Program-made: the position numbers and the translations under genes
Source: Saccharibacillus sacchari DSM 19268
Lineage (GTDB): Bacteria > Bacillota > Bacilli > Paenibacillales > Paenibacillaceae
NCBI RefSeq assembly: GCF_000585395.1
Contig: NZ_KK073875.1
Coordinates: 4,040,600 to 4,104,599 of the forward strand
Length of the DNA stretch: 64,000 nt
Direction of reading: 5' to 3'
The notes under the pieces: generated by a model
The model's input: the letters and a program-made list of their open reading frames with translations, nothing else
Told to the model about the DNA's origin: nothing
The model's database searches: none
Shown: positions 4,265-16,057 of the stretch, piece by piece
Position numbering within the stretch: the stretch's first letter is position 1
How the letters are laid out: each line of letters starts with the position of its first letter

Positions 4265-5239
4265 TTACTTCCGGACCGGGAAATAGCCGGATCTGGCCGC
4301 GTCTTTCTCGTTCTCGAATCGCTCTTCGACTTTCGCGGGCAGCTGCGCAGGATCGCGCGAGTAGTATCTGATTCCGGTAGACGGATCAACAGATCCATAG
4401 ATTACTTTTTTCTTCTTCAGCATGCCGCCGCCGAAGGAATAGTTATTGTACTGCTGGTCGCCCACAGGGATCCCTTGAATGAACGCGACGATTCCGATAT
4501 CATCGATCCCGTTATCCCACTCTTCCTGCGAAATTTGCGGCAATGTGAACAGATAATCGATTCCGTAGCGCGTCGCATATTGATTATGTCTATTGATCGT
4601 ATACGCAAGGTCGTTTTGAATCGCATGGATGATAGTTTGCCTGCGGGCGGTCTCGAACGTCGCGCCGTCTCTCAGCAAAGGAATTTGCGTAGAATCAACA
4701 ACTTCCGTGCGCTGCCCTTGAATCCAACGCGAGGAACTACGATCATACGTTTTCACAAATCCATCCAGGGAAAATTGTACGATATTCCCTTGCTTATCCG
4801 CATACGAGTATGGTTTCTTCGGCGACCATACCAGTCTCATCTGTGCCTGACCGCTGTCATCCACGAATTGTTCGGTTGCATAGATGTAGTAGCCGTCATA
4901 ATCGATCACTGCGACTGCCGGGATATAACCCGCAAGCGCTCCGATCGCGACCGCGTCGCCGTCCACATTAAAGTTCAAAGCCAGCGTTCGATAGAAAGCT
5001 TCTACGGCACGCTCTTTGTTGGCCCGAAAAAACTTTTTCGATCCGTACCCGGGTTCGTACCGCTGATCGACCGTTTCGTTCAACATGTACGCCGCATCCT
5101 GAATCGCCGTCTTGGTGACCGCATTATAACGATCGGTCAGCTGCATGACTTTATCCAGATCATCCAGGCGCATTGACGCAATTTGAAAAAAAGGCGAAAA
5201 GATCAGAACGAAAATAATCGCGAAACTAGTAATCTTCAT
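4265..5239 (-). CDS. Membrane-anchored protein of the Tad-like operon (unrecognised, 324 aa)
   Basis: I do not recognise a named family. The protein begins MKITSFAIIFVLIFSPFFQIAS, a single hydrophobic segment (residues 5-22) that could be a signal anchor, followed by about 300 polar residues expected outside the membrane. The rest is rich in Tyr, Asp and Gln and has no CxxC or lipobox. It is the last gene of the ten-gene operon and overlaps the preceding gene by 14 bases, implying translational coupling. By position it is a candidate minor pilin-like or surface subunit; that role is inferred only from context. Confidence 0.75.
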   Translation of the reverse strand: MKITSFAIIFVLIFSPFFQIASMRLDDLDKVMQLTDRYNAVTKTAIQDAAYMLNETVDQRYEPGYGSKKFFRANKERAVEAFYRTLALNFNVDGDAVAIGALAGYIPAVAVIDYDGYYIYATEQFVDDSGQAQMRLVWSPKKPYSYADKQGNIVQFSLDGFVKTYDRSSSRWIQGQRTEVVDSTQIPLLRDGATFETARRQTIIHAIQNDLAYTINRHNQYATRYGIDYLFTLPQISQEEWDNGIDDIGIVAFIQGIPVGDQQYNNYSFGGGMLKKKKVIYGSVDPSTGIRYYSRDPAQLPAKVEERFENEKDAARSGYFPVRK

Positions 5240-5777
5240 GCAAGACCATTCCTTCGTAGTTCATCAGAACCGTCGAATTTTCCGTGGTATTGTCGCTCAT
5301 TAAAAAATCCCAAAGCTGCGTAGCCGCCGTTCTATTTTTATTCGTCATCTGAATGCCGATGTAATCGCCGACCTGCATCGTGTAGCGCCTACCGGGATCA
5401 TTCGAAGGCAACGTGCTGTCGGGAAACAATACGGCAAGAATTTGTTGATTGTAAAATCCGGAATAGTAAGCGGTAAAGCTATGCTGAAAAGTAACCGAAT
5501 TTGCCGGATCGCCGTAATCAGGGCTGACTTGCTTATGCAGATGCTCCAGCTCCACTTCATACTGGTTACCTGTTGCCGCCAGTTGAGCATTAAACTCTTC
5601 GTACATTTTCGGCGTGATATACCCCTTCGTTCTTGCGCTATCGATAAAATGCATCGCTGCGCCCTGGACCACGATGTTTGCAATTTTATCTTGGCTTCTG
5701 GCTTGCTCATATAACGGGTACATGAACAAAAGCAAAACAGCCAAAAGAGCCGCGAATATGCCGGTTACATATTTCAT
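5226..5777 (-). CDS. Membrane-anchored protein of the Tad-like operon (unrecognised, 183 aa)
   Basis: No family is recognised. A single N-terminal hydrophobic stretch (residues 4-22, TGIFAALLAVLLLFMYPLY) precedes a polar ectodomain of about 160 residues, with the helix YEQARSQDKIANIVVQGAA directly after the membrane segment. That build, a hydrophobic helix running into an amphipathic helix, is pilin-like, but there is no prepilin peptidase motif. The gene starts 3 bases after the upstream stop and overlaps the downstream gene by 14 bases, so it is tightly coupled in the operon. Confidence 0.75.
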   Translation of the reverse strand: MKYVTGIFAALLAVLLLFMYPLYEQARSQDKIANIVVQGAAMHFIDSARTKGYITPKMYEEFNAQLAATGNQYEVELEHLHKQVSPDYGDPANSVTFQHSFTAYYSGFYNQQILAVLFPDSTLPSNDPGRRYTMQVGDYIGIQMTNKNRTAATQLWDFLMSDNTTENSTVLMNYEGMVLHEDY

Positions 5778-5780
5778 GTT

Positions 5781-6161
5781 TTATCCCCTAAATACGATTT
5801 TGATTAAATATCCCGCGCTGTCCCTCTCGTAAATTGCCCGGTATCTTTTGCTTAAATCAATCCTGCTCGGGTCAAAGTCTTCGTAATTTCCCGTCCGTAA
5901 ATAAAGCATTCCGTTCACCTCAATATCCAGATCGCTTTCTTGGATATTTCGAATGATGTTCACGATAGCAGCACCGCTATACGTTTCTTCTCCGGGAGCA
6001 GAGAGCTTGGCTTTAACCTTTCTGTCCTGATCCGTCTTCAACGCGTAGGCAAGCCGGGTTCCGTGTTCGATCGATTGAATGACGTTCACCGTATATGTAC
6101 ATGCCCCGATGAACAAGAAAAACACAGCTGCCAGTACCATAAAACTCCTCGCATTGCTCAT
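5781..6161 (-). CDS. Small membrane-anchored pilin-like protein (126 aa)
   Basis: The protein has an N-terminal hydrophobic segment (residues 6-24) followed by VNVIQSIEHGTRLAYALK, again a transmembrane helix leading into a helical stalk, then a small domain of about 80 residues with a GAAIVNIIRNIQ helix. The GAAIVNIIRNIQ region resembles the GSQVMNAVRQY stretch of the 154-residue protein encoded just upstream, which suggests that the two are diverged relatives. A GGAGGG ribosome site precedes the ATG. Function is inferred from operon context only. Confidence 0.75.
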   Translation of the reverse strand: MSNARSFMVLAAVFFLFIGACTYTVNVIQSIEHGTRLAYALKTDQDRKVKAKLSAPGEETYSGAAIVNIIRNIQESDLDIEVNGMLYLRTGNYEDFDPSRIDLSKRYRAIYERDSAGYLIKIVFRG

Positions 6162-6182
6162 CTATTCCCTCCAACCGGGCAG

Positions 6183-6209
6183 CAGCCTTCCGAACGGTCC
6201 GGAAGGCTG
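6183..6209 (-). other. Perfect 10-bp hairpin between two pilin-like genes
   Basis: CAGCCTTCCG and CGGAAGGCTG flank a seven-base loop about 20 bases upstream of the 126-residue gene. No T run follows on the minus strand, so it is not a standard terminator. It lies next to the repeat at 6213-6321, and both sit behind the gene most likely to encode the abundant subunit, so a role in transcript processing or partial termination is plausible. Confidence 0.55.
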
Positions 6210-6212
6210 TGG

Positions 6213-6321
6213 GTACCTTTTCAACGACACAGGTAAGATTACGCCCGCCTGGAATTTGGATCTTAACCCGGTACGAAGTGCTAGGCGAACACAATCCTCT
6301 GATTAAAAGTTGACAAGGTAC
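6213..6321. repeat. Short repeat with terminal inverted repeats, copy 1
   Basis: The element is 109 bases long and is bounded by GTACCTTTTCAAC on the left and GTTGACAAGGTAC on the right. Its reverse complement aligns with the element at 39541-39644: about 32 of the first 37 bases agree, and the block GGCGGGC-TAA-CTTAC is shared near the other end, while the middle differs. It carries no open reading frame with a convincing start. It sits 14 bases downstream of the 154-residue gene, inside the Tad-like operon. The layout resembles a MITE or a small structured RNA element. Confidence 0.7.
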
Positions 6322-6335
6322 CCGTTCCCTTTGTT

Positions 6336-6800
6336 TTATTTAGCTTGAACGAACACGATACCGCGAACCATGTTGTTATCATCGCGAACGACCGAAGACT
6401 TGAATTTACCCGACGGATTGATGAAATTGTTGTCGGCTTCATCCAATGCGGGAGACAAAACGGTATTGTTTTTTTCGCCTGTAATGATGCCTGTCGTCTG
6501 ATTGAACTGGCTGCCGTAATAAGTCGAACCGCCTTTACCCGTCTGAACGTATACGCCGAATTGCTTTTCATTGTTATACTGACGGACCGCGTTCATAACT
6601 TGGCTGCCGGACAACGTCGTGTTCTCATAGATATTGAAGCGCGTCTGCGACAACTGCGTCTGAATGGTAGAAAATTGAGTTTGGCCTTCTTTTGCAGCGT
6701 CTTGCGAAGAAATGAAAATGACGACCACCGTTGTGATCAGCGCGAGCGTCAGAAAAATTCCTGCTGCCAATTTCAAACCCGAAGTTGCATTGCTTCCCAT
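6336..6800 (-). CDS. Pilin-like membrane-anchored protein, probable main subunit of the Tad-like system (154 aa)
   Basis: The protein has a short polar start, MGSNATSGLK, a hydrophobic segment (residues 11-31) and then a long amphipathic, Gln/Ser/Thr-rich helix (about 32-58) before a small C-terminal domain with several Gly, Tyr and Asn residues. This is the build of a pilin or pseudopilin, but the GxxxxEY motif of Flp prepilins is absent. An AAAGGGGA ribosome site precedes the ATG. It lies between the TadB/C-like gene and the three other small membrane proteins. Calling it the main subunit is my inference from position and from the hairpin and repeat that follow it. Confidence 0.7.
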   Translation of the reverse strand: MGSNATSGLKLAAGIFLTLALITTVVVIFISSQDAAKEGQTQFSTIQTQLSQTRFNIYENTTLSGSQVMNAVRQYNNEKQFGVYVQTGKGGSTYYGSQFNQTTGIITGEKNNTVLSPALDEADNNFINPSGKFKSSVVRDDNNMVRGIVFVQAK

Positions 6801-6840
6801 AATAAATAGTCCCCTTTAAAATGAATTTTGGTTGATTGTT

Positions 6841-8919
6841 TTAAATTTGGCCCAGTTGCGTAATCAGATCCTTCATTTGCATAAACGATACGTACAGGAA
6901 CGGAACGATGATGTAAGCGCCAAGCATGAACATGACAGGCGCAAATCCGATATCCCTGCCCCAGTTTGCTTTGCTTTCAATCAGACGATCCATCGTTTCT
7001 TTTTTCTGTTCCCGGTAATACTCTTGCTCCATTTCCAAATCGTCGAACGCTTCCTGAATCGAAATACGCTCCAGCGCGTTTTCCAAACGTTCGATCATCC
7101 GGACAAACGATGGAAAAGGGGCTTCAGTCTTCAACTGCCGCAATGCCGCCGCAGGCCCGCTATCGTAATCGAGCAAACAGCGCTGAAGCGCAGGTTTGAA
7201 AATGATTCCGAAACGTTCCATCCATTCCAAAATAATCTGCACGCTCATCCGGTCAAATTGACTCAGAATCGAGATTAACATCCGGAATTGATCGACTTCA
7301 TTCTGCATTTCCATTCCGCGAATCCGACGTTGAAATTGCATGATTCCCAGCGGAACAAAGTAAACGCCCATCCCCGCCGCAACGGCGATCAACACTTCCC
7401 ACCATTTCAAATACTCGCTGTTTGCCTGACTCAACTTTTCCACAATGCGCGCTGACATGTCATTTTGTTGAACCTCGCTTAGTGTTGACGTAGCCGATTC
7501 TCTCACCAGAACTCGTACCTTATCCTCCCAATCGGACTTTCCGGCATCAATGTCCTGCATGATCCGGTTATCGAGAGAAGTACGCTCCTCCGCTTCCCGG
7601 CGCTCTGCATCATCAACCCGCCCCAGCATTAATCCACCTTTGAGATAGGTCGGTGCATTCCAGATTCGTTCAACCTGACCGATATGCGCCGATACAAACA
7701 TACCCGAGACAAAAAGGACGGCACACAGCGACAGCAGCAGACGTCTTACCGTCAACCATTCAATCATGAGCGGCGAATTGGATTCTTTAATCAACCGCGA
7801 TAGACTGTAATGCGCCTTCGTATGTTTCTGAGGCACGAATCGGTCAACGACGAAACGAATCGGCCGATACTCATATAGTTTCTTTTCCCAACGAATACCG
7901 CCCGATTTCGGCGTATAACGCGACTCTTCCGTTTCTGCGAGCTTGCGAATCAGCACATATGCCGCAACAGCTACCGCGTACAACAGCAGCTTCGCCGCCA
8001 GGCCGATCCGCCCTTCGTAAAATTCGCCCATGACAGGAAAATATGTTTCAGCCCAACGCTGAAGCGGGAAAGACAGCAGAATCGGCGCTAATGCAATGAC
8101 CGTTAAGCTATTTAGCTGATAACTCAAACGGTTTCTTCGCAGCAGGTCGAAGTTGATATCCTGAACGAACTTGCTGATTGCATTCAGGTATAACGAACCT
8201 TTCGCCGTCGTTTTGTCGCCGTATTCCATAATCATGCGCGCGATCCCCGTAAATACTTTCAAGTAACGGTTGGGAGCGACTTCATAGTAGGCTGCCAAGC
8301 TGCGATCCGGATCTTTGGCTGTTAGTACGCCATGCATCCGTTCACCGTGCAGCTTCATGTCATGACTGGATAACTGCGCGGCTTCATAGATTGCTTCATC
8401 CGCCATGCGGGTTGCTTGAAATTGATGCCGATTATCCTCCAAAAAGTCGCGAAAATCCTTCAGCAAGCGATTCTCTACGCGATGAACGAATAGATCGATA
8501 AGCATCCCGTTCAAAACGAGACAGCCGATCATACCCAGTAGCACAACGGACACGCTTCGGCCGAATAGAGCAAGAGCCAAAATCAATCCGACGACAATCA
8601 GTAAAACGGAGTAGGTGATCTTCATCGTTTCCTTGCGAATAGTCAGTTCATCATATGGACTGATCACCGCAAGCCGTTGACGGATTCGACGCACTTGACC
8701 GCGAAAGATCGGGATTTGCGCGGAACGAACATAGGAACGTTGATAGAAGCGATTGAGCTTCGGGTTTTCCTTCTTCATCCCCGGCTGACGATTCATCCAA
8801 CTGGCGATCGTCTCTTCTTGAACCCCGCTTTTCTTACGCAGCTGTCGCAGAATGATCCAGAGCACAATCGGAACGACGTACAATGCGGAGGCCAGGATAA
8901 TAAGCAATTTCACACTCAT
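6841..8919 (-). CDS. TadB/TadC-like type II secretion F-domain membrane protein
   Basis: This is the inner membrane platform protein that in Tad/Flp systems couples the ATPase to subunit extrusion. At 692 residues it is about twice the length of a single TadB or TadC. Hydrophobic segments occur at about 3-24, 105-145 (two), 270-325 (two), 385-405, 505-525 and 660-680. Two cytoplasmic F-like regions are visible, one with FLEDNRHQFQATRMADEAIYEA and one with FRMLISILSQFDRMSVQIIL, which suggests a TadB-TadC fusion. It overlaps the ATPase gene by 4 bases. The C-terminal half is the clearer F-domain match; the N-terminal half is more diverged. Confidence 0.8.
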   Translation of the reverse strand: MSVKLLIILASALYVVPIVLWIILRQLRKKSGVQEETIASWMNRQPGMKKENPKLNRFYQRSYVRSAQIPIFRGQVRRIRQRLAVISPYDELTIRKETMKITYSVLLIVVGLILALALFGRSVSVVLLGMIGCLVLNGMLIDLFVHRVENRLLKDFRDFLEDNRHQFQATRMADEAIYEAAQLSSHDMKLHGERMHGVLTAKDPDRSLAAYYEVAPNRYLKVFTGIARMIMEYGDKTTAKGSLYLNAISKFVQDINFDLLRRNRLSYQLNSLTVIALAPILLSFPLQRWAETYFPVMGEFYEGRIGLAAKLLLYAVAVAAYVLIRKLAETEESRYTPKSGGIRWEKKLYEYRPIRFVVDRFVPQKHTKAHYSLSRLIKESNSPLMIEWLTVRRLLLSLCAVLFVSGMFVSAHIGQVERIWNAPTYLKGGLMLGRVDDAERREAEERTSLDNRIMQDIDAGKSDWEDKVRVLVRESATSTLSEVQQNDMSARIVEKLSQANSEYLKWWEVLIAVAAGMGVYFVPLGIMQFQRRIRGMEMQNEVDQFRMLISILSQFDRMSVQIILEWMERFGIIFKPALQRCLLDYDSGPAAALRQLKTEAPFPSFVRMIERLENALERISIQEAFDDLEMEQEYYREQKKETMDRLIESKANWGRDIGFAPVMFMLGAYIIVPFLYVSFMQMKDLITQLGQI

Positions 8920-10811
8920 GCCGATTCAATCCCCCAGTACCGGTCCAGAAAGGCGCGAAAATCAGCGGCATCTTCCCTCGACATGTTTCCTGCCATCAAC
9001 TCTACTTTTCGAGCAGTAGGACGATGTACCGGAACATACCTACCGTCTCGGAATTCGATAATATTCCTCGCTTCGAACGTACGTCCCGTCAAGCGTCGGT
9101 AGTAATCGAGATTGGCGCGGGCTAACACTTTAATCGCCGATGCCTCATCCAACTCTCCATCCAATTTTCCTGCAAGTTCGGCAAACCCTTGTTCGTCGGG
9201 ATCCAGCACGACGCATTCCGTCAACCGTTCGATATACCGGGTACCGTCGCGCTCTTTTTCCAGATGCACATCGAACGCGATGACACTGGCTACCTGTTCC
9301 TCGGCGATCCGTTCGTTCTGAAACGTTCCCGTCTTAAGCAATGAGTTTCGCAGCGACCAGATCAAGTCTTTCATCGTTTTGGCGTGATGGCTGAAAACCG
9401 TGAATTTACTGGCAACTTGCGACATTTGAACAGCCCAGGCCGCAACCGGATCGGTCGCAACTTCCCCGAGAATGTTAACCGTGCCGTCGGTCTTTTTTTG
9501 AAGATCCAAGCCTTCCTGACCGCTGATTTTGTCCGTCTCGCGAAAAGCCAGTGTATTTCGTTCCGGATACAACCTGCGTAAATGCAGCTCGAACGCCAAT
9601 TCTTGAATCCGCAGATTGAACGTTCCGTAGATCGACTTGACCATCGCCATAAGCAGCGTCGTTTTACCCGAACCTTGCTCGCCCGTCACGGCCGTGACCT
9701 GAGCGCCTTTCATCAAATAATCCAGCATTTTCATCGGCAGTTCGGCGCCTTTGACTTGTTCGGAAGCGAGCAAACGCTCCAAACTCAGATTCGGCAAATC
9801 GAATTTACGCACAAAGAACGCCCAGCTTTCCGAAAAAGGAGGTCGTACCACGACAACCCGCGAACCGTCCTGCATTTCATTGACCATGTAAGCCTTGGCT
9901 TCGGACAGCTGTCCGGGACTGCCGAATTTGTAGATGTTCTGACAGACCCGCTTCAACTCCAGATCGCTGCCGAACCCAAGGAATGCCAAACGAATCGATT
10001 TTCCTCGGTAAAAAATCCAGATGCTGTCGCAGCCGCGAGGTCCTTTTTCCCGCATGGATCGCATCAATTCAACTTCATGCTCCAGCTCTTGCATATCGGC
10101 AGGCAGACCGGAGACCCCGCCCGAGACGCCGTCAATGGTCTGATCCCGCAGTTCATCGATCGGTCCAAATCCCTTATACTGCTGATACACACGTTGAACG
10201 ACGATTTGCAGCTTGTCATCGAAAGACAATCGAGGCGCTTCCAGAGCGTAGATATCGCGAATCTCTTCAGGAGTGATGATGTACGATTCCGTCTCGCCGT
10301 TTTCGATAATGGACTTCAGTTCTGCCAAACGATGCTTTTCGATCAGCCGGCTTAAGCCCTGCATGCCGTGCTCCAATTTGTAGGCGTGCAGCAAAATATC
10401 AAATTTGTCCTGATCGGTAAGCAGCCGCTCGTCGCCGAAAGGCAGCACGCGATCAATCGTCGATTCGTTAATCACTTCTCCGCGCAGAAGCAAATCGGCA
10501 ATGAATGATTTAACGTAAGTCTTATCCGCCAAACTGCCGGAATTGCACATCTTAAGCGAACTTTTCAGTTCAGCCACGACATTTCTTCTGCGCTCGAACT
10601 CTTCAGCCGATAAACCAAGGTCCAACAGATTGGCATTGGTGAATTCATTAATGGCCGCCGTCGCATAGGACTGAAGCGCCTCGATCGTAAGAAGCTCGGC
10701 CTCAAGTTCGCGTGCTCCTTGCGCCATGGGACTTTTACGAAGCAGCAGGAGCAGCCACAACAAAATCCCGGCAAGAATCACGCAAATCAGCAGCAAATTA
10801 ATCCAGTCCAT
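8916..10811 (-). CDS. TadA/CpaF-like secretion ATPase with N-terminal membrane anchor
   Basis: This is the hexameric motor ATPase of the Tad-like machine. A transmembrane helix at residues 5-24 is unusual, since most TadA/CpaF proteins are soluble. The ATPase core follows: Walker A GEQGSGKTT at 377-385, an Asp-box-like region with RIQELAFELHLRRLYPERN at 401-419, Walker B-like NILGE at 446-450 and a His box SHHAKT at 474-479. The segment YKGFGPIDEL (212-221) matches the conserved entry of CpaF N-terminal domains. It is coupled to its neighbours by a 4-base overlap downstream and a 3-base gap upstream. Catalytic residues appear intact, unlike those in the three ParA-like modules of this operon. 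Confidence 0.88.
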   Translation of the reverse strand: MDWINLLLICVILAGILLWLLLLLRKSPMAQGARELEAELLTIEALQSYATAAINEFTNANLLDLGLSAEEFERRRNVVAELKSSLKMCNSGSLADKTYVKSFIADLLLRGEVINESTIDRVLPFGDERLLTDQDKFDILLHAYKLEHGMQGLSRLIEKHRLAELKSIIENGETESYIITPEEIRDIYALEAPRLSFDDKLQIVVQRVYQQYKGFGPIDELRDQTIDGVSGGVSGLPADMQELEHEVELMRSMREKGPRGCDSIWIFYRGKSIRLAFLGFGSDLELKRVCQNIYKFGSPGQLSEAKAYMVNEMQDGSRVVVVRPPFSESWAFFVRKFDLPNLSLERLLASEQVKGAELPMKMLDYLMKGAQVTAVTGEQGSGKTTLLMAMVKSIYGTFNLRIQELAFELHLRRLYPERNTLAFRETDKISGQEGLDLQKKTDGTVNILGEVATDPVAAWAVQMSQVASKFTVFSHHAKTMKDLIWSLRNSLLKTGTFQNERIAEEQVASVIAFDVHLEKERDGTRYIERLTECVVLDPDEQGFAELAGKLDGELDEASAIKVLARANLDYYRRLTGRTFEARNIIEFRDGRYVPVHRPTARKVELMAGNMSREDAADFRAFLDRYWGIESA

Positions 10812-10814
10812 GCC

Positions 10815-11660
10815 TTATGAGGCTCCTTTCGCGGCATCTACGTGTTTCAGTCTGGTGTTGATGCCGATCTCTTCCAGTACCTTTTCCGCAGTCCGACGAA
10901 CTTCCATCATGAACGGATAGTTGTCATGCCGCCGATCCAATGAGCGACTGCGCGCCATGAAGCCTTTGATATCCCCATCATTGATCGCATCTCTAAAATC
11001 AGAACTGTAAGGCACGGTCAATGCAGGCTCGCGTCTTCCGTACTTGCGCAAAATGTTGGCTGCTTTGTATTTGGAACGAGGATCGTAACCCGAGAACAAG
11101 AGCAGTTGTTTTTTGCCATGAAGCTCTTTCGGCCATCCGTTTCGATTGAAATAACGTTCCAGCATATCCGCATTCTGCGTTAAACAAACGACAACGAGAT
11201 CCGCTTCCGCAAGCGCCTGCGCCGCAGCCGGACTGTCGGTTCCCGATCGGATATCCAGCAAAATGCAGTCGTAATAGTTTCGTGCGTTGGCATAGATATT
11301 TCCGATAAGTCCGCCGGCATTCTCGAATTGCAGACGATTCATTCGCTCCGAGCCGCTGAGCAAATCCAGACGATCCCGTTCGATCAAAAGCGCGTTGTTT
11401 TTAACCGTTTCCCGCTCCAACTTGCCGCTGCGAGCCAAACGAACCAACGCATCCAGTCCGGTTCCGGCATCGGTAGCCAGGTCTCGACTATATGTATTGA
11501 TCGAGCGGGAAAAGCCTCGTTCCAGCGTGCTTTCTTCTCCCTGCGGTTGGGAAACCAACGTGCGAATCCGATACTCGCTGCCGATAATCGAAGCAATTGC
11601 GGCAACAGAAGAAGTGACGCCTGTGCCATGCCCCATACTCCAAAAGGCGATTTGTCCCAT
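10815..11660 (-). CDS. CpaE/TadZ-like ParA-fold protein with degenerate P-loop
   Basis: The protein has the build of a ParA/MinD ATPase, the family that places Tad/Flp machines in the cell. After MGQIAFWS comes MGHGTGVTSSVAAIASIIG, which occupies the P-loop position, but the lysine expected before T/S is replaced by Val. The DCILLDIRSG stretch corresponds to the Walker A' aspartate strand, and LVVVCLTQN to the next one. I start at the ATG at 11660 because AAAGGAG lies 8 bases before it; the longer in-frame extension has no ribosome site. This gives 281 residues. ATP binding is doubtful. Confidence 0.75.
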   Translation of the reverse strand: MGQIAFWSMGHGTGVTSSVAAIASIIGSEYRIRTLVSQPQGEESTLERGFSRSINTYSRDLATDAGTGLDALVRLARSGKLERETVKNNALLIERDRLDLLSGSERMNRLQFENAGGLIGNIYANARNYYDCILLDIRSGTDSPAAAQALAEADLVVVCLTQNADMLERYFNRNGWPKELHGKKQLLLFSGYDPRSKYKAANILRKYGRREPALTVPYSSDFRDAINDGDIKGFMARSRSLDRRHDNYPFMMEVRRTAEKVLEEIGINTRLKHVDAAKGAS

Positions 11661-11661
11661 T

Positions 11662-12333
11662 TTATTTGCTCCTTTCAGCTTTTTTCCACAATTTGCGCGT
11701 TTCGCGTTCGTCATTTTCAAGCAATACCGTGGCAATCCCTTGCACGGCTTTTTTCATTTCCGGGGACAGTCCTTTCAGCTTTAAACTGTTGGCATACTGA
11801 TTGCCAATTTTGATCGCAAGATCACGTTCATCCGGGTAATAGACCAAGGTTTCTTTCCAATCGATCGGAAAAGCTTCAAATTGTTCATTGATATAAGCTT
11901 CTCCCGGTTCACGCGCACCTTCCATCCATACTTTATGAAAGGCAGATAGTTCAGCAAGCGGCCGTTCTGTAAAAAAGCTCTCCAAGAGCCGAACGCTTCG
12001 ACGAACCGAGGTCTGCTCGCATCCCATTACAAGGAATCGCTGCTCCGCTTCCGGCAGCTCGCTGATCCGAAACGGATCGTCCGTGTCATACAGAACAAAA
12101 TCATAGTCCGCATGGGCAAAAGCTTGCTCACCTCTCGCCGGAATCCAAACTTCAAATCCGTCATACTCCTGCGGCTGGCCCGGAACATCCAACGCCGGAT
12201 ACGAAAATTCGTAACTTCCAAGCGCTGTAGCATCGACAATCAACACGCGCAGCCCGCTTTCGGCTAATATTTTGGCTGTATAAAACAGCAGGTCCGTTTT
12301 ATCCCGATCACCGATAAAAATAGCTCGTTTCAC
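11662..12333 (-). CDS. ParA/MinD-like protein lacking a P-loop (223 aa)
   Basis: The start MKRAIFIGDRDKTD-LLFYTAKILAESGLRVLIVDA follows the first strand, loop, helix and second strand of ParA/MinD proteins, but the loop is GDRDKTD rather than a glycine-rich KGGxGKT. YDFVLYDTDDP matches the D-strand, and FLVMGCEQTSVRRSVRLLESF resembles the next strand and helix. The C-terminal half is helical and basic. It ends one base before the next gene, which is another ParA-like protein, so the two could form a heterodimer. Homology is judged from fold pattern only; no motif proves it. Confidence 0.65.
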   Translation of the reverse strand: MKRAIFIGDRDKTDLLFYTAKILAESGLRVLIVDATALGSYEFSYPALDVPGQPQEYDGFEVWIPARGEQAFAHADYDFVLYDTDDPFRISELPEAEQRFLVMGCEQTSVRRSVRLLESFFTERPLAELSAFHKVWMEGAREPGEAYINEQFEAFPIDWKETLVYYPDERDLAIKIGNQYANSLKLKGLSPEMKKAVQGIATVLLENDERETRKLWKKAERSK

Positions 12334-12345
12334 TCGTCATCCTCC

Positions 12346-13311
12346 TCAATCGCTTACGCCGGCATCGGAGTTATCCGTGAAAACGGGCTCGCTTTCTGCC
12401 GCCTCGGCTTCTTGCGTCGTTCCGGTATCCACGCTTTGCTCTTGAATCAGCGAGTTGTTTTGCGTACCGGGATTGATCGTGCTCATGTTCGCCTTACTAT
12501 TCAGATACTTCTGAATGTCTTCCGGCGTCAGCAGATCGAGTCCGCTCTCCAGCTTTTCGCGCATCCGGCGTTCCAGCTCGGTCTTCGCACGTTCGACGAT
12601 ATTCGGATCGCTTTCAATCAGATCCAGAACACTTGCGTTTGCCGGATAAGTAATAGTTGCGGCTTGTTGAAGACCCGGTTCAACATAGGTTACCGCGTAG
12701 ATCGAAGCATCGTTCAGATAAGCGTCCACAATCGCCGACGACATCGTCAAAATCTCGCGTTCGTTCATCTGCACCCAGATTGTTCCCGAAGCCAGATCTT
12801 CCGTGCGTTTTTTGGACAATACGATGAAGTCTTCGCCTGTCGGGAACTTTACGCGAACGTCGACGAACTCTCCGGCTTGCAGGCGACTCGGCAGCTCGAT
12901 CAAGCGAAACTCTTGATTCCGCAGATCTTTAGGCGTCACTTCGCCTTCGTACAGCATCGACTCGCTGACAGGCATGTTTTTGGAAAGCGAAACTTTCGCA
13001 TAACGCCCTACTGCATCTTCCCGCGCGGACATATCTTCCGGAACGGTCGTTTTAACCACTTCAATCTGGACTAGATCATCCTCCCCGATTTCTTCGCCGG
13101 CCTGGATATTACGCGTCAGCGCAAAGACCGGTACGCGCTGCGCGTCCATCTCCGCAATCTGCTGTTCATAACCGCTCCGATCAGCCTCGTAGTTTTTTTC
13201 GATATGGCGCACATAAGGAATGCCCGCCGCTGCGCAGATCAATAACGCTGCCGCGGCTCCCGCCCCCGCAGTCAGCAAACGCTGACGCTGGCGAAACCTG
13301 ATTCTTGACAT
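12346..13311 (-). CDS. CpaB/RcpC-like SAF-domain protein
   Basis: This is a Flp-pilus assembly protein of the CpaB type. A transmembrane helix (residues 13-30, rich in Ala) is followed by a short coiled stretch, then a SAF domain beginning VPVFALTRNIQAGEEIGEDDLVQIEVV (about 55-82) with the typical RYAKVSLSKNMPVSESML continuation. A CpaB C-terminal domain region follows, with LQAGEFVDVRVKF. The tail from about 270 is low-complexity and rich in Thr, Glu and Ser. In Gram-negatives CpaB sits in the periplasm near the secretin; here, with no secretin, it presumably faces the cell wall. It is the second gene of the operon. Confidence 0.82.
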   Translation of the reverse strand: MSRIRFRQRQRLLTAGAGAAAALLICAAAGIPYVRHIEKNYEADRSGYEQQIAEMDAQRVPVFALTRNIQAGEEIGEDDLVQIEVVKTTVPEDMSAREDAVGRYAKVSLSKNMPVSESMLYEGEVTPKDLRNQEFRLIELPSRLQAGEFVDVRVKFPTGEDFIVLSKKRTEDLASGTIWVQMNEREILTMSSAIVDAYLNDASIYAVTYVEPGLQQAATITYPANASVLDLIESDPNIVERAKTELERRMREKLESGLDLLTPEDIQKYLNSKANMSTINPGTQNNSLIQEQSVDTGTTQEAEAAESEPVFTDNSDAGVSD

Positions 13312-13377
13312 GATTGTTCTCCCTTCATTTCTGGTTATGCCGATCTTGCTTTTGCAGCTTCAGCTTCGTTTTCCGCT

Positions 13378-14826
13378 CTATCGGAAGCCCAGTTTCAAGA
13401 TCGACCGTCTCCCTTTTCTTGCATAAAACGAACCCAGAATCGGCTCAAAAACGTCGCGTTGGTTGCCATCGAACGGATTCGATAGCGAAGGCAGCGAATA
13501 GATTCTTTTGTGACCGAGCCTTCGGCGCATTTCCCGCACGGCATCCTCAGCGGCAAAGGGAAGCACGTACGTCCACTTGGGCCTGACGCGCAATGTTTCC
13601 CGATGGGCAAAAGCGACTAAATCTCCGCTTCGCCACTCGCTTGCGGAGCCGACAATCACCGGAACGTCCGCCCGCAAAAATTCTTCAAAGTCACGAGCAT
13701 CACTGCACGTCCCAAGATCCAGGACCACGTATCGGTATCCTCTGCTGAAAATGTCGGTCAAACGGTTGCGTTCTGACGAGGGCCAGTAATCGACTCCCCG
13801 AATACTGAACATCCGTCGTCCTCTGAGCGGCTCGCCCTCCCATTCCATCGCAATTCGTTCAAAAGCTCCAGACATTCGGCTCAACTCGACGAGCGCGGTT
13901 CGCCCTCCCTCGCGAGCCAGAGTATGTGCCGCGGCAACCGCTATGTGCGTAGCTCCGCAACCTTGGAAGTTGCCCAGCACCGCAATCGTGGATGTGCCTC
14001 CAACACCCGGGGTCAACGAAGTTTCGCCTTCGACGGGTTCAGGCTGAATGATTCGCTTGATATCACCGATATGCGGATAACGCTCTTCTCGTCGATAACT
14101 GAGCATCCGGCGAATCGCAGGCACCAGCGCCGAAGGAAGATCAGGCCGAAGCGCTCGCTGTGCCTCCGGTGTCCATTCGCTAAACCGACCACCCGTGGAG
14201 AGATACAACAGCATCGCCCCCAACGCGTACTGATCGCTGGACGGATCGCTTTGCCCTTCATACTGCTCGGGTGCGGCAAATCCGATAGTCCCCAGCTTTA
14301 CCGTATCGGCGCTCTTGTCCGGATTGGCACTACGCGCAATTCCAAAGTCGATCAAACGAATAGTTCCGTCTTCACCGATCATCACATTGCCTGGTTTCAA
14401 ATCCCGGAAAACGACAGGCGGACTTTGCGTATGCAGATACTCCAACGTTTCGCAAATGCGCAATGTCAGCTCCAAGATAAACGGAATGTCCAGGATGCCT
14501 CCGGCTTTACTCGCATAATCGCTCAGATTCGAACCTTCGATGTACTCCATGACCAGAAATACTCGACCTTCCGTATCCGGCGCAAAAAAGTCCGCGACCT
14601 GAGGCAAACTGCGATGACGCAGCCTGGTCAGCATTCTCGCTTCGTTTTCGATCCTTTCATAATCCGCCGTATCGGCCATCGTCTCCTTGACGGCCCACCA
14701 CTTGCCCGGAAGCTTGGCATCGGAAGCCAGATAGACCCGACCCATTCCGCCGCTCCCGAGTACGCGTTCCACCCGGTATCGATCTCCTATTACGGCTCCT
14801 CGCTCCAATTTCGGCGGGTACGGCAT
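13378..14826 (-). CDS. Hanks-type Ser/Thr kinase fused to a ParA-like domain
   Basis: The first 260 residues form an apparently active protein kinase: glycine loop GSGGMG at 24-29, Lys47, helix-C Glu62, catalytic loop FRD at 140-142, DFG at 160-162 and APE at 185-187. After a short linker, a second domain from about 278 begins STIAVLGNFQGCGATHIAV, which matches the start of ParA/MinD proteins but has Ala in place of the P-loop Lys; YVVLDLG then matches the Walker A' strand. There is no membrane helix or PASTA domain, so the kinase is cytosolic. It is the first gene of the Tad-like operon and probably controls assembly. The promoter lies upstream of a terminator (see 14847-14964). Confidence 0.88.
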   Translation of the reverse strand: MPYPPKLERGAVIGDRYRVERVLGSGGMGRVYLASDAKLPGKWWAVKETMADTADYERIENEARMLTRLRHRSLPQVADFFAPDTEGRVFLVMEYIEGSNLSDYASKAGGILDIPFILELTLRICETLEYLHTQSPPVVFRDLKPGNVMIGEDGTIRLIDFGIARSANPDKSADTVKLGTIGFAAPEQYEGQSDPSSDQYALGAMLLYLSTGGRFSEWTPEAQRALRPDLPSALVPAIRRMLSYRREERYPHIGDIKRIIQPEPVEGETSLTPGVGGTSTIAVLGNFQGCGATHIAVAAAHTLAREGGRTALVELSRMSGAFERIAMEWEGEPLRGRRMFSIRGVDYWPSSERNRLTDIFSRGYRYVVLDLGTCSDARDFEEFLRADVPVIVGSASEWRSGDLVAFAHRETLRVRPKWTYVLPFAAEDAVREMRRRLGHKRIYSLPSLSNPFDGNQRDVFEPILGSFYARKGRRSILKLGFR

Positions 14827-14974: not shown

Positions 14975-16057
14975 TTAATATTTGATCATGTAAAGCGTAA
15001 TTTCTTCGCGATTATGGAACAATTGCTTAGCCCGCTGGACCTGTAAACGCGAGTTTTCGAACGAAGCAATGACCTCTTTGATCAGCGCCATCGGCTTTTT
15101 GTGCATGAGCTTGATCGTGACGATAGCCGTACCGCCAGGACTTAATCCATGCAGCAAGCCCGTCACCAGTTGAACCATCAATTTGGGGCTCCAACTCATG
15201 TCGCACACCAGCAAATCGAATTCGTTTTCTTTGAATTTGACTTCGCTTGCGTTTTTACGGATATAGGTCAGGTTCGGCGACTTGAGAAGCGATGGATGCA
15301 GTTTCGCCGGGTCGATCGCGGTTACCTTCAACCCGCGTTCAAGCAGCAGCGACGTCCAACCGCCCGGAGCCGCACCAATGTCTACCGCGCTGCGATAGGC
15401 AGAGAGATCCAGTCCGAATTCCCGTTCGGCTTCAAGCAGTTTGAATTTGGCGCGGGACAGCTGGCCTTCCTCGCGGCGGAAACGAACCGCTCCTCCGCTC
15501 CAATCCGACAAATTGTCCTCCGGACGCGAAATTCCCGCGTAAATTGCCGAATCCGTCAAATACACCGAGGCAATCCAATCGGCGCTTGCCGTCACGAATT
15601 CCACTTCGGATGCCCGAAGCAATTCTTCCAGCCATTCCTTCAACTGCGACGAACTTTCCTCGCCCGCATCAGCGCTTTTTCTCACCTGAAGCGCGACTTT
15701 GACGCCTGCTCCCATTACGGGGCTCCGCAGAATAAATGACGCGGCTTCAGCCAACAATTCTCCGGCATTTTCACCTTCGCGTTCGAATTGAACAGGTTGA
15801 ATATGACGCAGGAAAATAGGACGACTATCCGAAATTTGTTGTACAGCGTTCTGCTCGGATACGTTCAATTTAACCAAAAGAACTTCACGGTCGCTCAATA
15901 CGCTGCTTTTTACCGAGCCGAAAAGTCGACGAAGCTCTTCCTGTGCATAAGCCGCAAAGTCACGGTTCGCCGTGCAAATGAATAAACTTTCTCCTTGCTC
16001 CGGCTCCTGAACTTCTTCTATGTTTTGATTTTCTTGTTCCAACTCGTGCTCACTCAA
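14975..16057 (-). CDS. FtsJ/RlmM-like SAM-dependent RNA 2'-O-methyltransferase
   Basis: This predicted rRNA 2'-O-ribose methyltransferase has the Rossmann motif DIGAAPGGWT at 226-235. The K-D-K-E tetrad of FtsJ-type enzymes is present: Lys204, Asp286, Lys316 and Glu351 or 352. The first 25 residues are acidic and probably disordered, and the N-terminal half (25-190) is a THUMP-like or RlmM-like RNA-binding region. Length 360 residues is close to that of RlmM. The exact nucleotide target cannot be read from sequence. Confidence 0.85.
   Translation of the reverse strand: MSEHELEQENQNIEEVQEPEQGESLFICTANRDFAAYAQEELRRLFGSVKSSVLSDREVLLVKLNVSEQNAVQQISDSRPIFLRHIQPVQFEREGENAGELLAEAASFILRSPVMGAGVKVALQVRKSADAGEESSSQLKEWLEELLRASEVEFVTASADWIASVYLTDSAIYAGISRPEDNLSDWSGGAVRFRREEGQLSRAKFKLLEAEREFGLDLSAYRSAVDIGAAPGGWTSLLLERGLKVTAIDPAKLHPSLLKSPNLTYIRKNASEVKFKENEFDLLVCDMSWSPKLMVQLVTGLLHGLSPGGTAIVTIKLMHKKPMALIKEVIASFENSRLQVQRAKQLFHNREEITLYMIKY

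What the first reader, a model, noticed from the sequence alone, without database searches (positions are those of the whole stretch)
4265..14826. Ten-gene Tad/Flp-like machine led by a kinase-ParA fusion, with no prepilin peptidase, secretin or canonical Flp pilin
The operon holds a TadA-type ATPase, a double-length TadB/C protein, a CpaB-like SAF protein, three ParA-like modules, a Hanks kinase and four membrane-anchored small proteins, all on one strand with overlaps or short gaps. Known Tad systems need a TadV/CpaA peptidase and a GxxxxEY pilin; neither is visible. The kinase as first gene suggests phosphorylation control of assembly. This may be a diverged Gram-positive secretion or surface-appendage system rather than a normal pilus.
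Basis: partly seen in the sequence, partly recalled or inferred. Interest (0 to 1): 0.75.

Follow-up and report, generated by a model that had tools for sequence, protein, structure and literature searches.

The report
Leaderless Tad-like envelope machine of Bacillota
The ten genes are one example of a widespread relative of the bacterial Tad pilus machine, found on chromosomes and on conjugation-type plasmids, whose pilin-like subunits appear to carry no leader peptide and which usually occurs with an unstudied large secreted surface protein.

Summary
The operon is real, intact and conserved. Nine genes (CpaB-like, two ParA-like, TadA-like, TadB/C-like, four small membrane proteins) keep their order in relatives from Paenibacillaceae, Tumebacillus, Lysinibacillus, Sporosarcina and Clostridia. 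The first gene varies: a TadZ/CpaE-like protein whose N-terminal part is a Hanks kinase in 40 of 131 loci, 35 of them beside one flanking gene. The genome also holds a standard Tad locus and a type IVa-like locus, each with an A24 peptidase, so this is a third system. The small proteins start almost directly with a membrane helix: a class-III leader pattern is found in 1 of 128 sml4, against 41 of 42 standard TadE-type proteins under the same rule. The ten such plasmids examined also carry a coupling protein. Most likely: a peptidase-independent Tad-derived machine that puts a short adhesive fibre through the wall. Filament and function are inferred.

The parts
13378..14826 (-). Gene 1: Hanks-type Ser/Thr kinase fused to a ParA/TadZ-like C-terminal domain (482 aa)
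   Evidence: PF00069 E 1.3e-34; C-terminal part matches the CpaE-like family 96.5% and the C-terminal part of 23 kinase-free first genes 100% over 208 columns; catalytic residues 37 of 37 rows; GK[TS] P-loop absent in 59 of 59 aligned rows
12346..13311 (-). CpaB-like membrane-anchored SAF protein (321 aa)
   Evidence: PF08666 E 2.4e-8, over cut-off; TIGR03177 E 3.7e-9, below its cut-off; one N-terminal hydrophobic helix
11662..12333 (-). ParA1: CpaE/TadZ-like protein with modified P-loop (GxxDK[TS]) (223 aa)
   Evidence: hhalign to CpaE-like family 94.7%; GK[TS] 0 of 119, but a Lys in the loop stretch in 113 of 119
10815..11660 (-). ParA2: CpaE/TadZ-like protein with degenerate P-loop
   Evidence: hhalign to CpaE-like family 93.5%; GK[TS] in 4 of 120
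8916..10811 (-). TadA/CpaF-type ATPase with an N-terminal hydrophobic helix and long N-terminal extension (631 aa)
   Evidence: hhalign to TadA 99.2%, E 2.4e-19; CpaF structures E 7.5e-17; Walker A intact 119 of 119; helix 6-24 by hydropathy
6841..8919 (-). TadB/TadC-like polytopic platform protein, double length (692 aa)
6336..6800 (-). sml4: candidate major pilin-like subunit without leader (154 aa)
   Evidence: AF2: helix 2-58, then helix plus beta strands, mean pLDDT 82; leader pattern 1 of 128 relatives; extra sml4-like copies in 12 loci and inside the operon in 21 clostridial loci
5781..6161 (-). sml3: small N-terminally anchored protein (126 aa)
   Evidence: hydrophobic helix 7-25; found in 76 of 80 loci; leader pattern 2 of 126
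5226..5777 (-). sml2: small N-terminally anchored protein (183 aa)
   Evidence: hydrophobic helix 4-22; found in 75 of 80 loci; leader pattern 3 of 125
4265..5239 (-). sml1: N-terminally anchored protein, candidate tip or minor subunit (324 aa)
   Evidence: hydrophobic helix 3-21; found in 71 of 80 loci; 14-base overlap with sml2 seen in many relatives; leader pattern 12 of 121
14975..16057 (-). Flanking methyltransferase-like gene (name read by eye) marking the chromosomal site of kinase-type loci; not part of the machine
   Evidence: this family flanks 35 of 40 kinase-type loci and none of the other 91 loci examined

Best explanation
The operon encodes a distinct, probably peptidase-independent branch of the Tad type of the type IV filament superfamily. 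Shown: a TadA-type ATPase with intact P-loop and an N-terminal hydrophobic helix, a platform protein with a weak TadB match, CpaB-like and TadZ/CpaE-like proteins, and four small proteins that begin almost directly with a membrane helix. Shown: the machine co-occurs with DUF5704, a large protein with a signal-peptide-like start (by eye), usually next to a wall-binding SLH or Cu_amine_oxidN1 protein. In this genome three such pairs are unlinked to the operon; on most plasmids looked at, and in some chromosomes, the pair lies just downstream. Inferred: TadA hydrolyses ATP and, through the platform, extracts leaderless sml4 (with sml3, sml2, sml1 as minor or tip subunits) from the membrane into a short fibre or pseudopilus across the wall; the wall protein and DUF5704 form its exit and adhesive end, the divergent N-terminal half of DUF5704 giving specificity. 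Inferred: plasmid copies make mating-cell contact beside a VirB4/VirD4-type T4SS. Inferred: in chromosomal copies such as this one, the kinase replaces the receiver-like part of TadZ/CpaE and gates assembly by phosphorylation.
For: Gene order kept in 47 of 51 and 74 of 80 loci. TadA and CpaE homology, with unrelated family pairs as negatives; CpaF structures. Leader pattern under one rule: sml4 1 of 128, sml3 2 of 126, sml2 3 of 125, sml1 12 of 121, standard TadE-type 41 of 42. No A24 match on 10 of 10 operon plasmids. DUF5704 in 60 of 64 machine-positive and 0 of 54 machine-negative genomes; the same 5 of 398 genomes in a phylum sample; on 22 of 24 operon plasmids, and 22 of 23 plasmids with a DUF5704 match carry the operon, out of 72,556 records. 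Wall-protein family in 54 and DUF5704 in 31 of 131 loci near the operon; three pairs in this genome. DUF5704 C-terminal part conserved, N-terminal part divergent among the three. TraG-type coupling protein on 10 of 10 operon plasmids.
Against: No filament has been seen. The sml4 model has no standing-out fold match, and sml1-4 match no standard pseudopilin by profile. sml1 gives 12 of 121 for the leader pattern; the six examples printed carry an in-frame extension upstream of a later Met. A24 peptidases exist elsewhere in this genome and in 21 of 22 clostridial genomes, so a trans-acting peptidase is not excluded. Four machine-positive genomes lack DUF5704; in 100 of 131 loci it is not within the stretch held. 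One of the 22 plasmids (Butyrivibrio pCY186) has only a partial match, 44% of the query at 23% identity, and the two proteins there show no Pfam match. The genome counts come from related genomes and are not independent. TraG relatives covering at least 80% of the query also occur on plasmids without the operon: 4 of 10 records and 1 of 8 records in two searches. The VirB4-type AAA_10 model is unspecific: 9 of 10 plasmids match at E <= 1e-3, but only 5 reach cut-off, one has none, and it rings in 10 of 14 control genomes. This genome has no TraG match, so the conjugation reading does not carry over to the window.
Confidence: 0.5

Rival explanations
1. A non-filament exporter: the ATPase and platform drive a wall-spanning secretion or assembly complex, and the four small proteins are static anchors. 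On plasmids it helps the T4SS in the way of a VirB11-type ATPase.
For: Small proteins lack leaders and no pilin stood out in the fold searches; plasmid copies occur with T4SS-type genes; the constant partner DUF5704 could be the cargo.
Against: The three DUF5704 proteins here begin with signal-peptide-like sequences (by eye), so they may need no special exporter. This genome has the operon without a TraG match. sml4-like genes are multiplied in 33 loci (12 plus 21), as expected for filament subunits.
Confidence: 0.25
2. An ordinary Tad pilus that borrows the TadV peptidase and Flp pilin of the second Tad locus in the same genome.
For: The genome has a TadV-size A24 protein and a Flp-like pilin.
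Against: That locus has its own TadA-, TadB-, TadC- and TadE-type genes. The operon's own small proteins show no leader. Ten plasmids carry the operon without an A24 or TadE match; their host chromosomes were not searched, and the TadE model is a weak detector (it rings in 1 of 14 controls).
Confidence: 0.12
3. A DNA-uptake or natural-transformation machine.
For: A tad locus serves transformation in Micrococcus luteus (cited within PMC5696575, passages read).
Against: No ComEA- or ComEC-like gene was recognised by eye among the 30 commonest neighbour families; no family search was made for this.
Confidence: 0.08

Closest known systems
Tad/Flp (CpaF-type) pilus of the type IV filament superfamily
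   Same: TadA/CpaF-type ATPase, CpaB-like SAF protein, CpaE/TadZ-like proteins, a weak TadB match of half the platform
   Different: no A24 peptidase, Flp, TadE or secretin recognised in the operon; TadA with N-terminal hydrophobic helix, platform in one chain; three ParA-like modules, two with degenerate P-loop; leaderless small proteins; DUF5704 partner
Conjugative type IVb pili that accompany a T4SS (PAPI-1; R64 recalled, from no call)
   Same: a type IV filament gene set encoded on an element that moves by conjugation (PAPI-1: PMC5297154, abstract read); here the operon lies on plasmids with coupling-protein genes
   Different: those are Gram-negative type IVb pili; here a leaderless Tad-like set in Bacillota, also on chromosomes, in this genome without a TraG match
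tad locus on Cutibacterium acnes plasmids with conjugation signatures
   Same: Gram-positive plasmid with Tad genes beside VirB4-like and FtsK-like genes; three small TadE-like proteins said to share an N-terminus that is no signal peptide (PMC5696575, passages read)
   Different: there one subunit has a peptidase-site-like motif and one has a TadE domain; no kinase or DUF5704 in the passages read; the sequences were not compared here
T7SSg and T7SSh loci, which adjoin Tad genes (Paenibacillus among the hosts)
   Same: Tad genes in Paenibacillus linked to another envelope system (PMC11217815, passages read)
   Different: whether those Tad genes are of the present kind was not tested

Membership tests
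Tad/Flp pilus system | TadA/CpaF ATPase with intact nucleotide site | tested here: met
   hhalign 99.2%, CpaF structures E 7.5e-17, Walker A 119 of 119; TIGR03819 below its cut-off
Tad/Flp pilus system | TadB and TadC platform proteins | tested here: inconclusive
   N half to TadB 48%, C half none, yardstick TadB-TadC 97%; T2SSF not among the 25 of 71 Pfam families listed for 57 members; EpsF and PilC rows not above unrelated helical proteins
Tad/Flp pilus system | CpaE/TadZ-type ParA protein | tested here: met
   hhalign 93.5-96.5% for three modules; canonical P-loop mostly lost
Tad/Flp pilus system | CpaB/RcpC SAF protein | tested here: met
   PF08666 over cut-off; TIGR03177 E 3.7e-9 but below its cut-off
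Tad/Flp pilus system | Flp pilin with class-III leader and GxxxxEY | tested here: not met
   pattern scan 1 of 128 for sml4, 2 of 126 sml3, 3 of 125 sml2, 12 of 121 sml1, against 41 of 42 standard TadE-type proteins
Tad/Flp pilus system | TadV/CpaA A24 peptidase in the locus | tested here: not met
   own-genome matches only at two other loci; 0 of 10 operon plasmids
Tad/Flp pilus system | TadE/TadF pseudopilins | tested here: not met
   own-genome PF07811 matches only in the other Tad locus, 0 of 10 plasmids, but the model rings in only 1 of 14 controls; no hhalign match of sml1-4 to TadE-type families
Tad/Flp pilus system | assembly of an extracellular filament | not testable with these tools
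   needs microscopy
VirB/VirD4 type IV secretion system | VirB4- and VirD4-type ATPases within the operon | tested here: not met
   none recognised among the ten proteins; on plasmids such genes lie outside the operon
Type IV pilin fold | solved-structure match of sml4 | tested here: inconclusive
   outline alike (long N-terminal helix plus strands), but no match stood out

The most novel reading that the evidence does not exclude
A whole branch of the type IV filament superfamily in Bacillota builds its fibre from pilins encoded in mature, leaderless form, so it needs no prepilin peptidase. It uses a DUF5704 plus wall-anchor pair as its trans-wall exit and tip, is spread by conjugation-type plasmids where it serves mating contact, and has been domesticated on chromosomes under control of a Hanks kinase grafted onto TadZ.
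Probability: 0.33. Interest if true: 0.82.

Novelty: new variant of a known kind. Interest (0 to 1): 0.64.

Why it matters
Prepilin peptidase cleavage of a class-III leader is taken as a defining step of type IV filaments (general knowledge); a large natural family without leaders would show that the extraction motor can work on subunits made in mature form. The tight link to DUF5704, for which no paper was found in the library searched, gives that domain a testable role. The plasmid copies suggest an unrecognised mating-contact device on large plasmids of Paenibacillus, Lysinibacillus and relatives; the ten looked at are all typed non-mobilizable in PLSDB.

Tried and rejected
Considered and rejected: that the operon is a decayed Tad copy (ten open frames; Walker A of TadA and kinase residues invariant in relatives). 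That it is unique to this genome. That it is the conjugation channel itself: pSSII-1, the one plasmid whose annotation was read from end to end, has a separate T4SS block at about 97.6-108 kb. That absence of A24 peptidases in other hosts proves peptidase independence: 21 of 22 clostridial genomes have a match, so this argument was dropped.

Led nowhere: Pfam and NCBIfam gave no usable match for the small proteins, ParA1, ParA2 or the platform; a Cas_APE2256 match to sml4 (E 0.0013, below cut-off) was taken as chance. Structure searches with the sml4 and platform models gave no match that stood out; no pilin appears in the rows shown for sml4, which does not exclude one. Solved-structure sequence searches with ParA1, the platform and sml4 gave none. 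Paper searches for DUF5704; Tad, conjugative plasmid, Paenibacillus, TadA; conjugation, type IV pilus, TadA, replication-relaxation; Tad pilus, Firmicutes, prepilin peptidase, conjugative; type IV filament superfamily, Tad, Bacillota; Paenibacillus, Tad pili, flp; and CpaF, Paenibacillus, plasmid, SAF domain listed no paper whose title or shown abstract describes this system; the library holds open-licence PMC papers only and most listed papers were not opened. Geng et al. 2021 on pBsph transfer is not held and is known here only as cited in PMC13239906.

Limits of counts: the 131 loci hold 119 distinct TadA sequences, so some genomes are counted twice; neighbours are cut at locus ends. 'Gene order kept' judges only the genes found in a locus. 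My ORF caller took the longest ORF, so N-terminal extensions inflate the leader-pattern count. In one search the standard TadE-type proteins were scanned under a looser rule than the small proteins; one search repeats the scan with one rule for all (four settings: sml4 1-2 of 128, TadE-type 36-41 of 42, and the large TadG-type proteins 1-2 of 21). Machine-positive means best E below 1e-100; the other genomes' best matches are 4e-12 or weaker and are taken as standard TadA. One search scored only 3 candidates per genome. Names of the standard Tad genes other than TadV and TadE, of the type IVa-like locus and of Flp were read by eye. For the structure alignments I took 59 rows of sml4 (window plus 58 of 78 relatives) and 57 of the platform (window plus 56 of the 69 listed, itself a length-filtered list). 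Twelve near-copy loci were left out of the tree. Low-scoring sml3, sml4 and first-gene rows were left out of the profile comparison.
Full report
OBSERVATION. The ten ORFs are present on the minus strand at 4265-14826, with overlaps or short gaps. The nearest relatives of the ATPase are in Saccharibacillus (98% to a S. endophyticus protein); the window is C1:4040600-4104599 of a 6.08 Mb single-contig genome. Pfam recognises only the kinase (PF00069 and related kinase models) and the SAF/ChapFlgA domain above cut-off. NCBIfam adds weak TadA (TIGR03819, 4.3e-9) and CpaB (TIGR03177, 3.7e-9) matches, both below cut-off.

OTHER FILAMENT SYSTEMS IN THE GENOME. A24 peptidases occur at two other places. 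One lies in a standard Tad locus (L003) with TadA-, TadB-, TadC-, TadE- and TadV-type genes and a 65-aa Flp-like pilin with a class-III leader (names other than TadV and TadE by eye). The other lies beside PilT-, PilC-, PilM- and prepilin-like genes, also named by eye. The operon is therefore a third system. By profile-profile comparison with 21 standard Tad loci, the operon's ATPase matches TadA at 99.2%, and three modules match the CpaE/TadZ-like family at 93.5-96.5%. The platform matches TadB at 35% (48% for its N-terminal half; TadB against TadC gives 97%). The four small proteins match none of the standard pseudopilins; the other pairings serve as negative controls. CpaF is the nearest solved structure by sequence.

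CONSERVATION. Profiles of the ten proteins find most or all of the set in 50 other loci from Paenibacillaceae genomes and Bacillota plasmids; order and strand of the genes found agree in 47 of 51 with the window. In 80 named loci from a genome-wide scan the order holds in 74; CpaB, ParA1, ParA2, TadA and the platform are in 80 of 80, sml4 in 78, sml3 in 76, sml2 in 75, sml1 in 71 and a first-gene match of any strength in 54; some loci are cut by contig ends. Hosts include Paenibacillus, Cohnella, Tumebacillus and clostridial MAGs. Twelve loci carry an extra sml4-like gene, and in 21 clostridial loci a family of 65 further small proteins, 42 of them matched by the sml4 profile, lies almost wholly inside the operon.

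FIRST GENE. Forty of 131 loci have kinase plus ParA; 35 of them share the flanking methyltransferase-like gene, and none of the other 91 has it. In 23 other loci the first gene keeps the same C-terminal domain (hhalign 100% over 208 columns) with another N-terminal part; as a whole these match the CpaE-like family at 71%. I read the kinase as a replacement of the receiver-like domain of a TadZ/CpaE-like protein (inference). In the TadA tree the Saccharibacillus loci sit not with the main kinase-type branch of 23 rows, but in a set of 22 rows with 14 kinase-free ones, two of them plasmid records (SH-aLRT 99; quick search, no bootstrap, long branches elsewhere). In each of the nine core genes the window is closer to kinase-free L062 and L063 (sml4 88% and 77%) than to kinase-type L034 of its own genus (47%). 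This suggests exchange of machine genes at a fixed chromosomal site; it was not tested further.

MOTIFS. TadA keeps its P-loop in 119 of 119 rows. GK[TS] is missing in 59 of 59 rows of the first-gene C-terminal domain and in 116 of 120 rows of ParA2. ParA1 has no GK[TS] in 119 rows, but a Lys in the loop stretch in 113. TadA starts with a hydrophobic helix (visible in many rows). Seven kinase catalytic positions are invariant in 37 of 37 rows.

LEADERLESS SMALL PROTEINS. A scan for [GAS]x4E followed by a hydrophobic stretch, one rule for all, finds 1 of 128 sml4, 2 of 126 sml3, 3 of 125 sml2 and 12 of 121 sml1, against 21 of 21 and 20 of 21 in two standard TadE-type families. The large TadG-type proteins give 2 of 21, so the pattern does not mark every protein of a Tad locus. 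In sml4 the hydrophobic window begins a median of 3 residues from the start. The sml4 model is a 57-residue N-terminal helix followed by a helix and strands (mean pLDDT 82, pTM 0.60). It resembles a pilin in outline only; no solved pilin stood out.

PARTNER. Near the operon two families recur: a wall-binding protein (SLH or Cu_amine_oxidN1 in those scanned) in 54 of 131 loci and a DUF5704 protein in 31 of 131 (Pfam). In 118 Paenibacillaceae genomes 64 have the machine and 60 have DUF5704, all 60 within the 64; the four without are G028, G046, G083 and G117. Fisher's p is 2.7e-29, but the genomes are related, so it overstates the case. In 398 genomes sampled across the phylum the same five, all of this family, have both. 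Among 72,556 plasmids 24 carry the TadA over at least 80% of its length, 23 have a DUF5704 match and 22 have both; one of these 22, Butyrivibrio pCY186, has only a weak partial match without Pfam support. In this genome the three DUF5704 genes are unlinked to the operon, each directly after an SLH or Cu_amine_oxidN1 gene. Among the three, the last five 100-column blocks are 69-99% identical and the first six 8-78%. Two independent kinase-type loci have DUF5704 downstream (L029, identical in TadA to L124; and L131).

PLASMID CONTEXT. A TraG-type coupling protein is on 10 of 10 operon plasmids searched. The AAA_10 model (VirB4-type but unspecific: it rings in 10 of 14 controls) matches 9 of 10 at E <= 1e-3, 5 over cut-off; the window's genome has one match below cut-off. 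On pSSII-1 a T4SS block (PrgI, DUF87 ATPase, type IV secretion system protein, peptidoglycan peptidase) lies apart from the operon. As a control, TraG relatives covering at least 80% of the query lie on operon plasmids in 6 of 10 and 7 of 8 records, so the coupling protein also occurs without the operon. In L. sphaericus the pBsph-like plasmid p1593 is described as conjugative, with a T4SS, and mobilises IME8 (PMC13239906, passages read). That pSSII-1 is of this type is inference; p1593 itself was not among the hits listed. No operon plasmid of the ten has an A24 or TadE match. The window's genome has no TraG match.

MECHANISM AND NOVELTY. The best-supported reading is a Tad-derived machine that works without leader cleavage and acts with a DUF5704 and wall-anchor pair. 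Co-occurrence, anatomy and leaderless starts are shown; filament, adhesion, mating contact and kinase control are inferred. It fails the Flp, TadV and TadE tests of Tad membership, so it is best called a new variant of the Tad kind that probably works like one.

Noticed in passing
L003 (G000 C1:736000-754000): Standard Tad locus in the same genome, with a Flp-like pilin at L003:13566-13763 and a neighbouring 1623-aa secreted-looking protein at L003:1873-6744.
   Followed up: partly
L004:4856-10421 (G000 C1:3210000-3226000): Type IVa pilus-like locus: PilT-, PilC-, prepilin-, A24 peptidase- and PilM-like genes, named by eye apart from the A24.
   Followed up: partly
L138, L139, L140: Three unlinked wall-anchor plus DUF5704 gene pairs in the window's genome, with conserved C-terminal and divergent N-terminal DUF5704 halves, as expected for a variable surface protein.
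   Followed up: yes
G049 and G070: Eight and six DUF5704 matches in genomes with two machine-type TadA genes each, some matches being fragments: paralogs outnumber machines.
   Followed up: no
window 4265-13311 against L062, L063, L034: Machine genes of this Saccharibacillus are closer to kinase-free loci than to a kinase-type locus of the same genus, although site and kinase are of the kinase type: possible in-place replacement.
   Followed up: partly
G118:C3:166391-166603 and G126:C11:6775-7008: A24 peptidase matches with in-frame stops in two clostridial genomes: possible pseudogenes or frameshifts.
   Followed up: no
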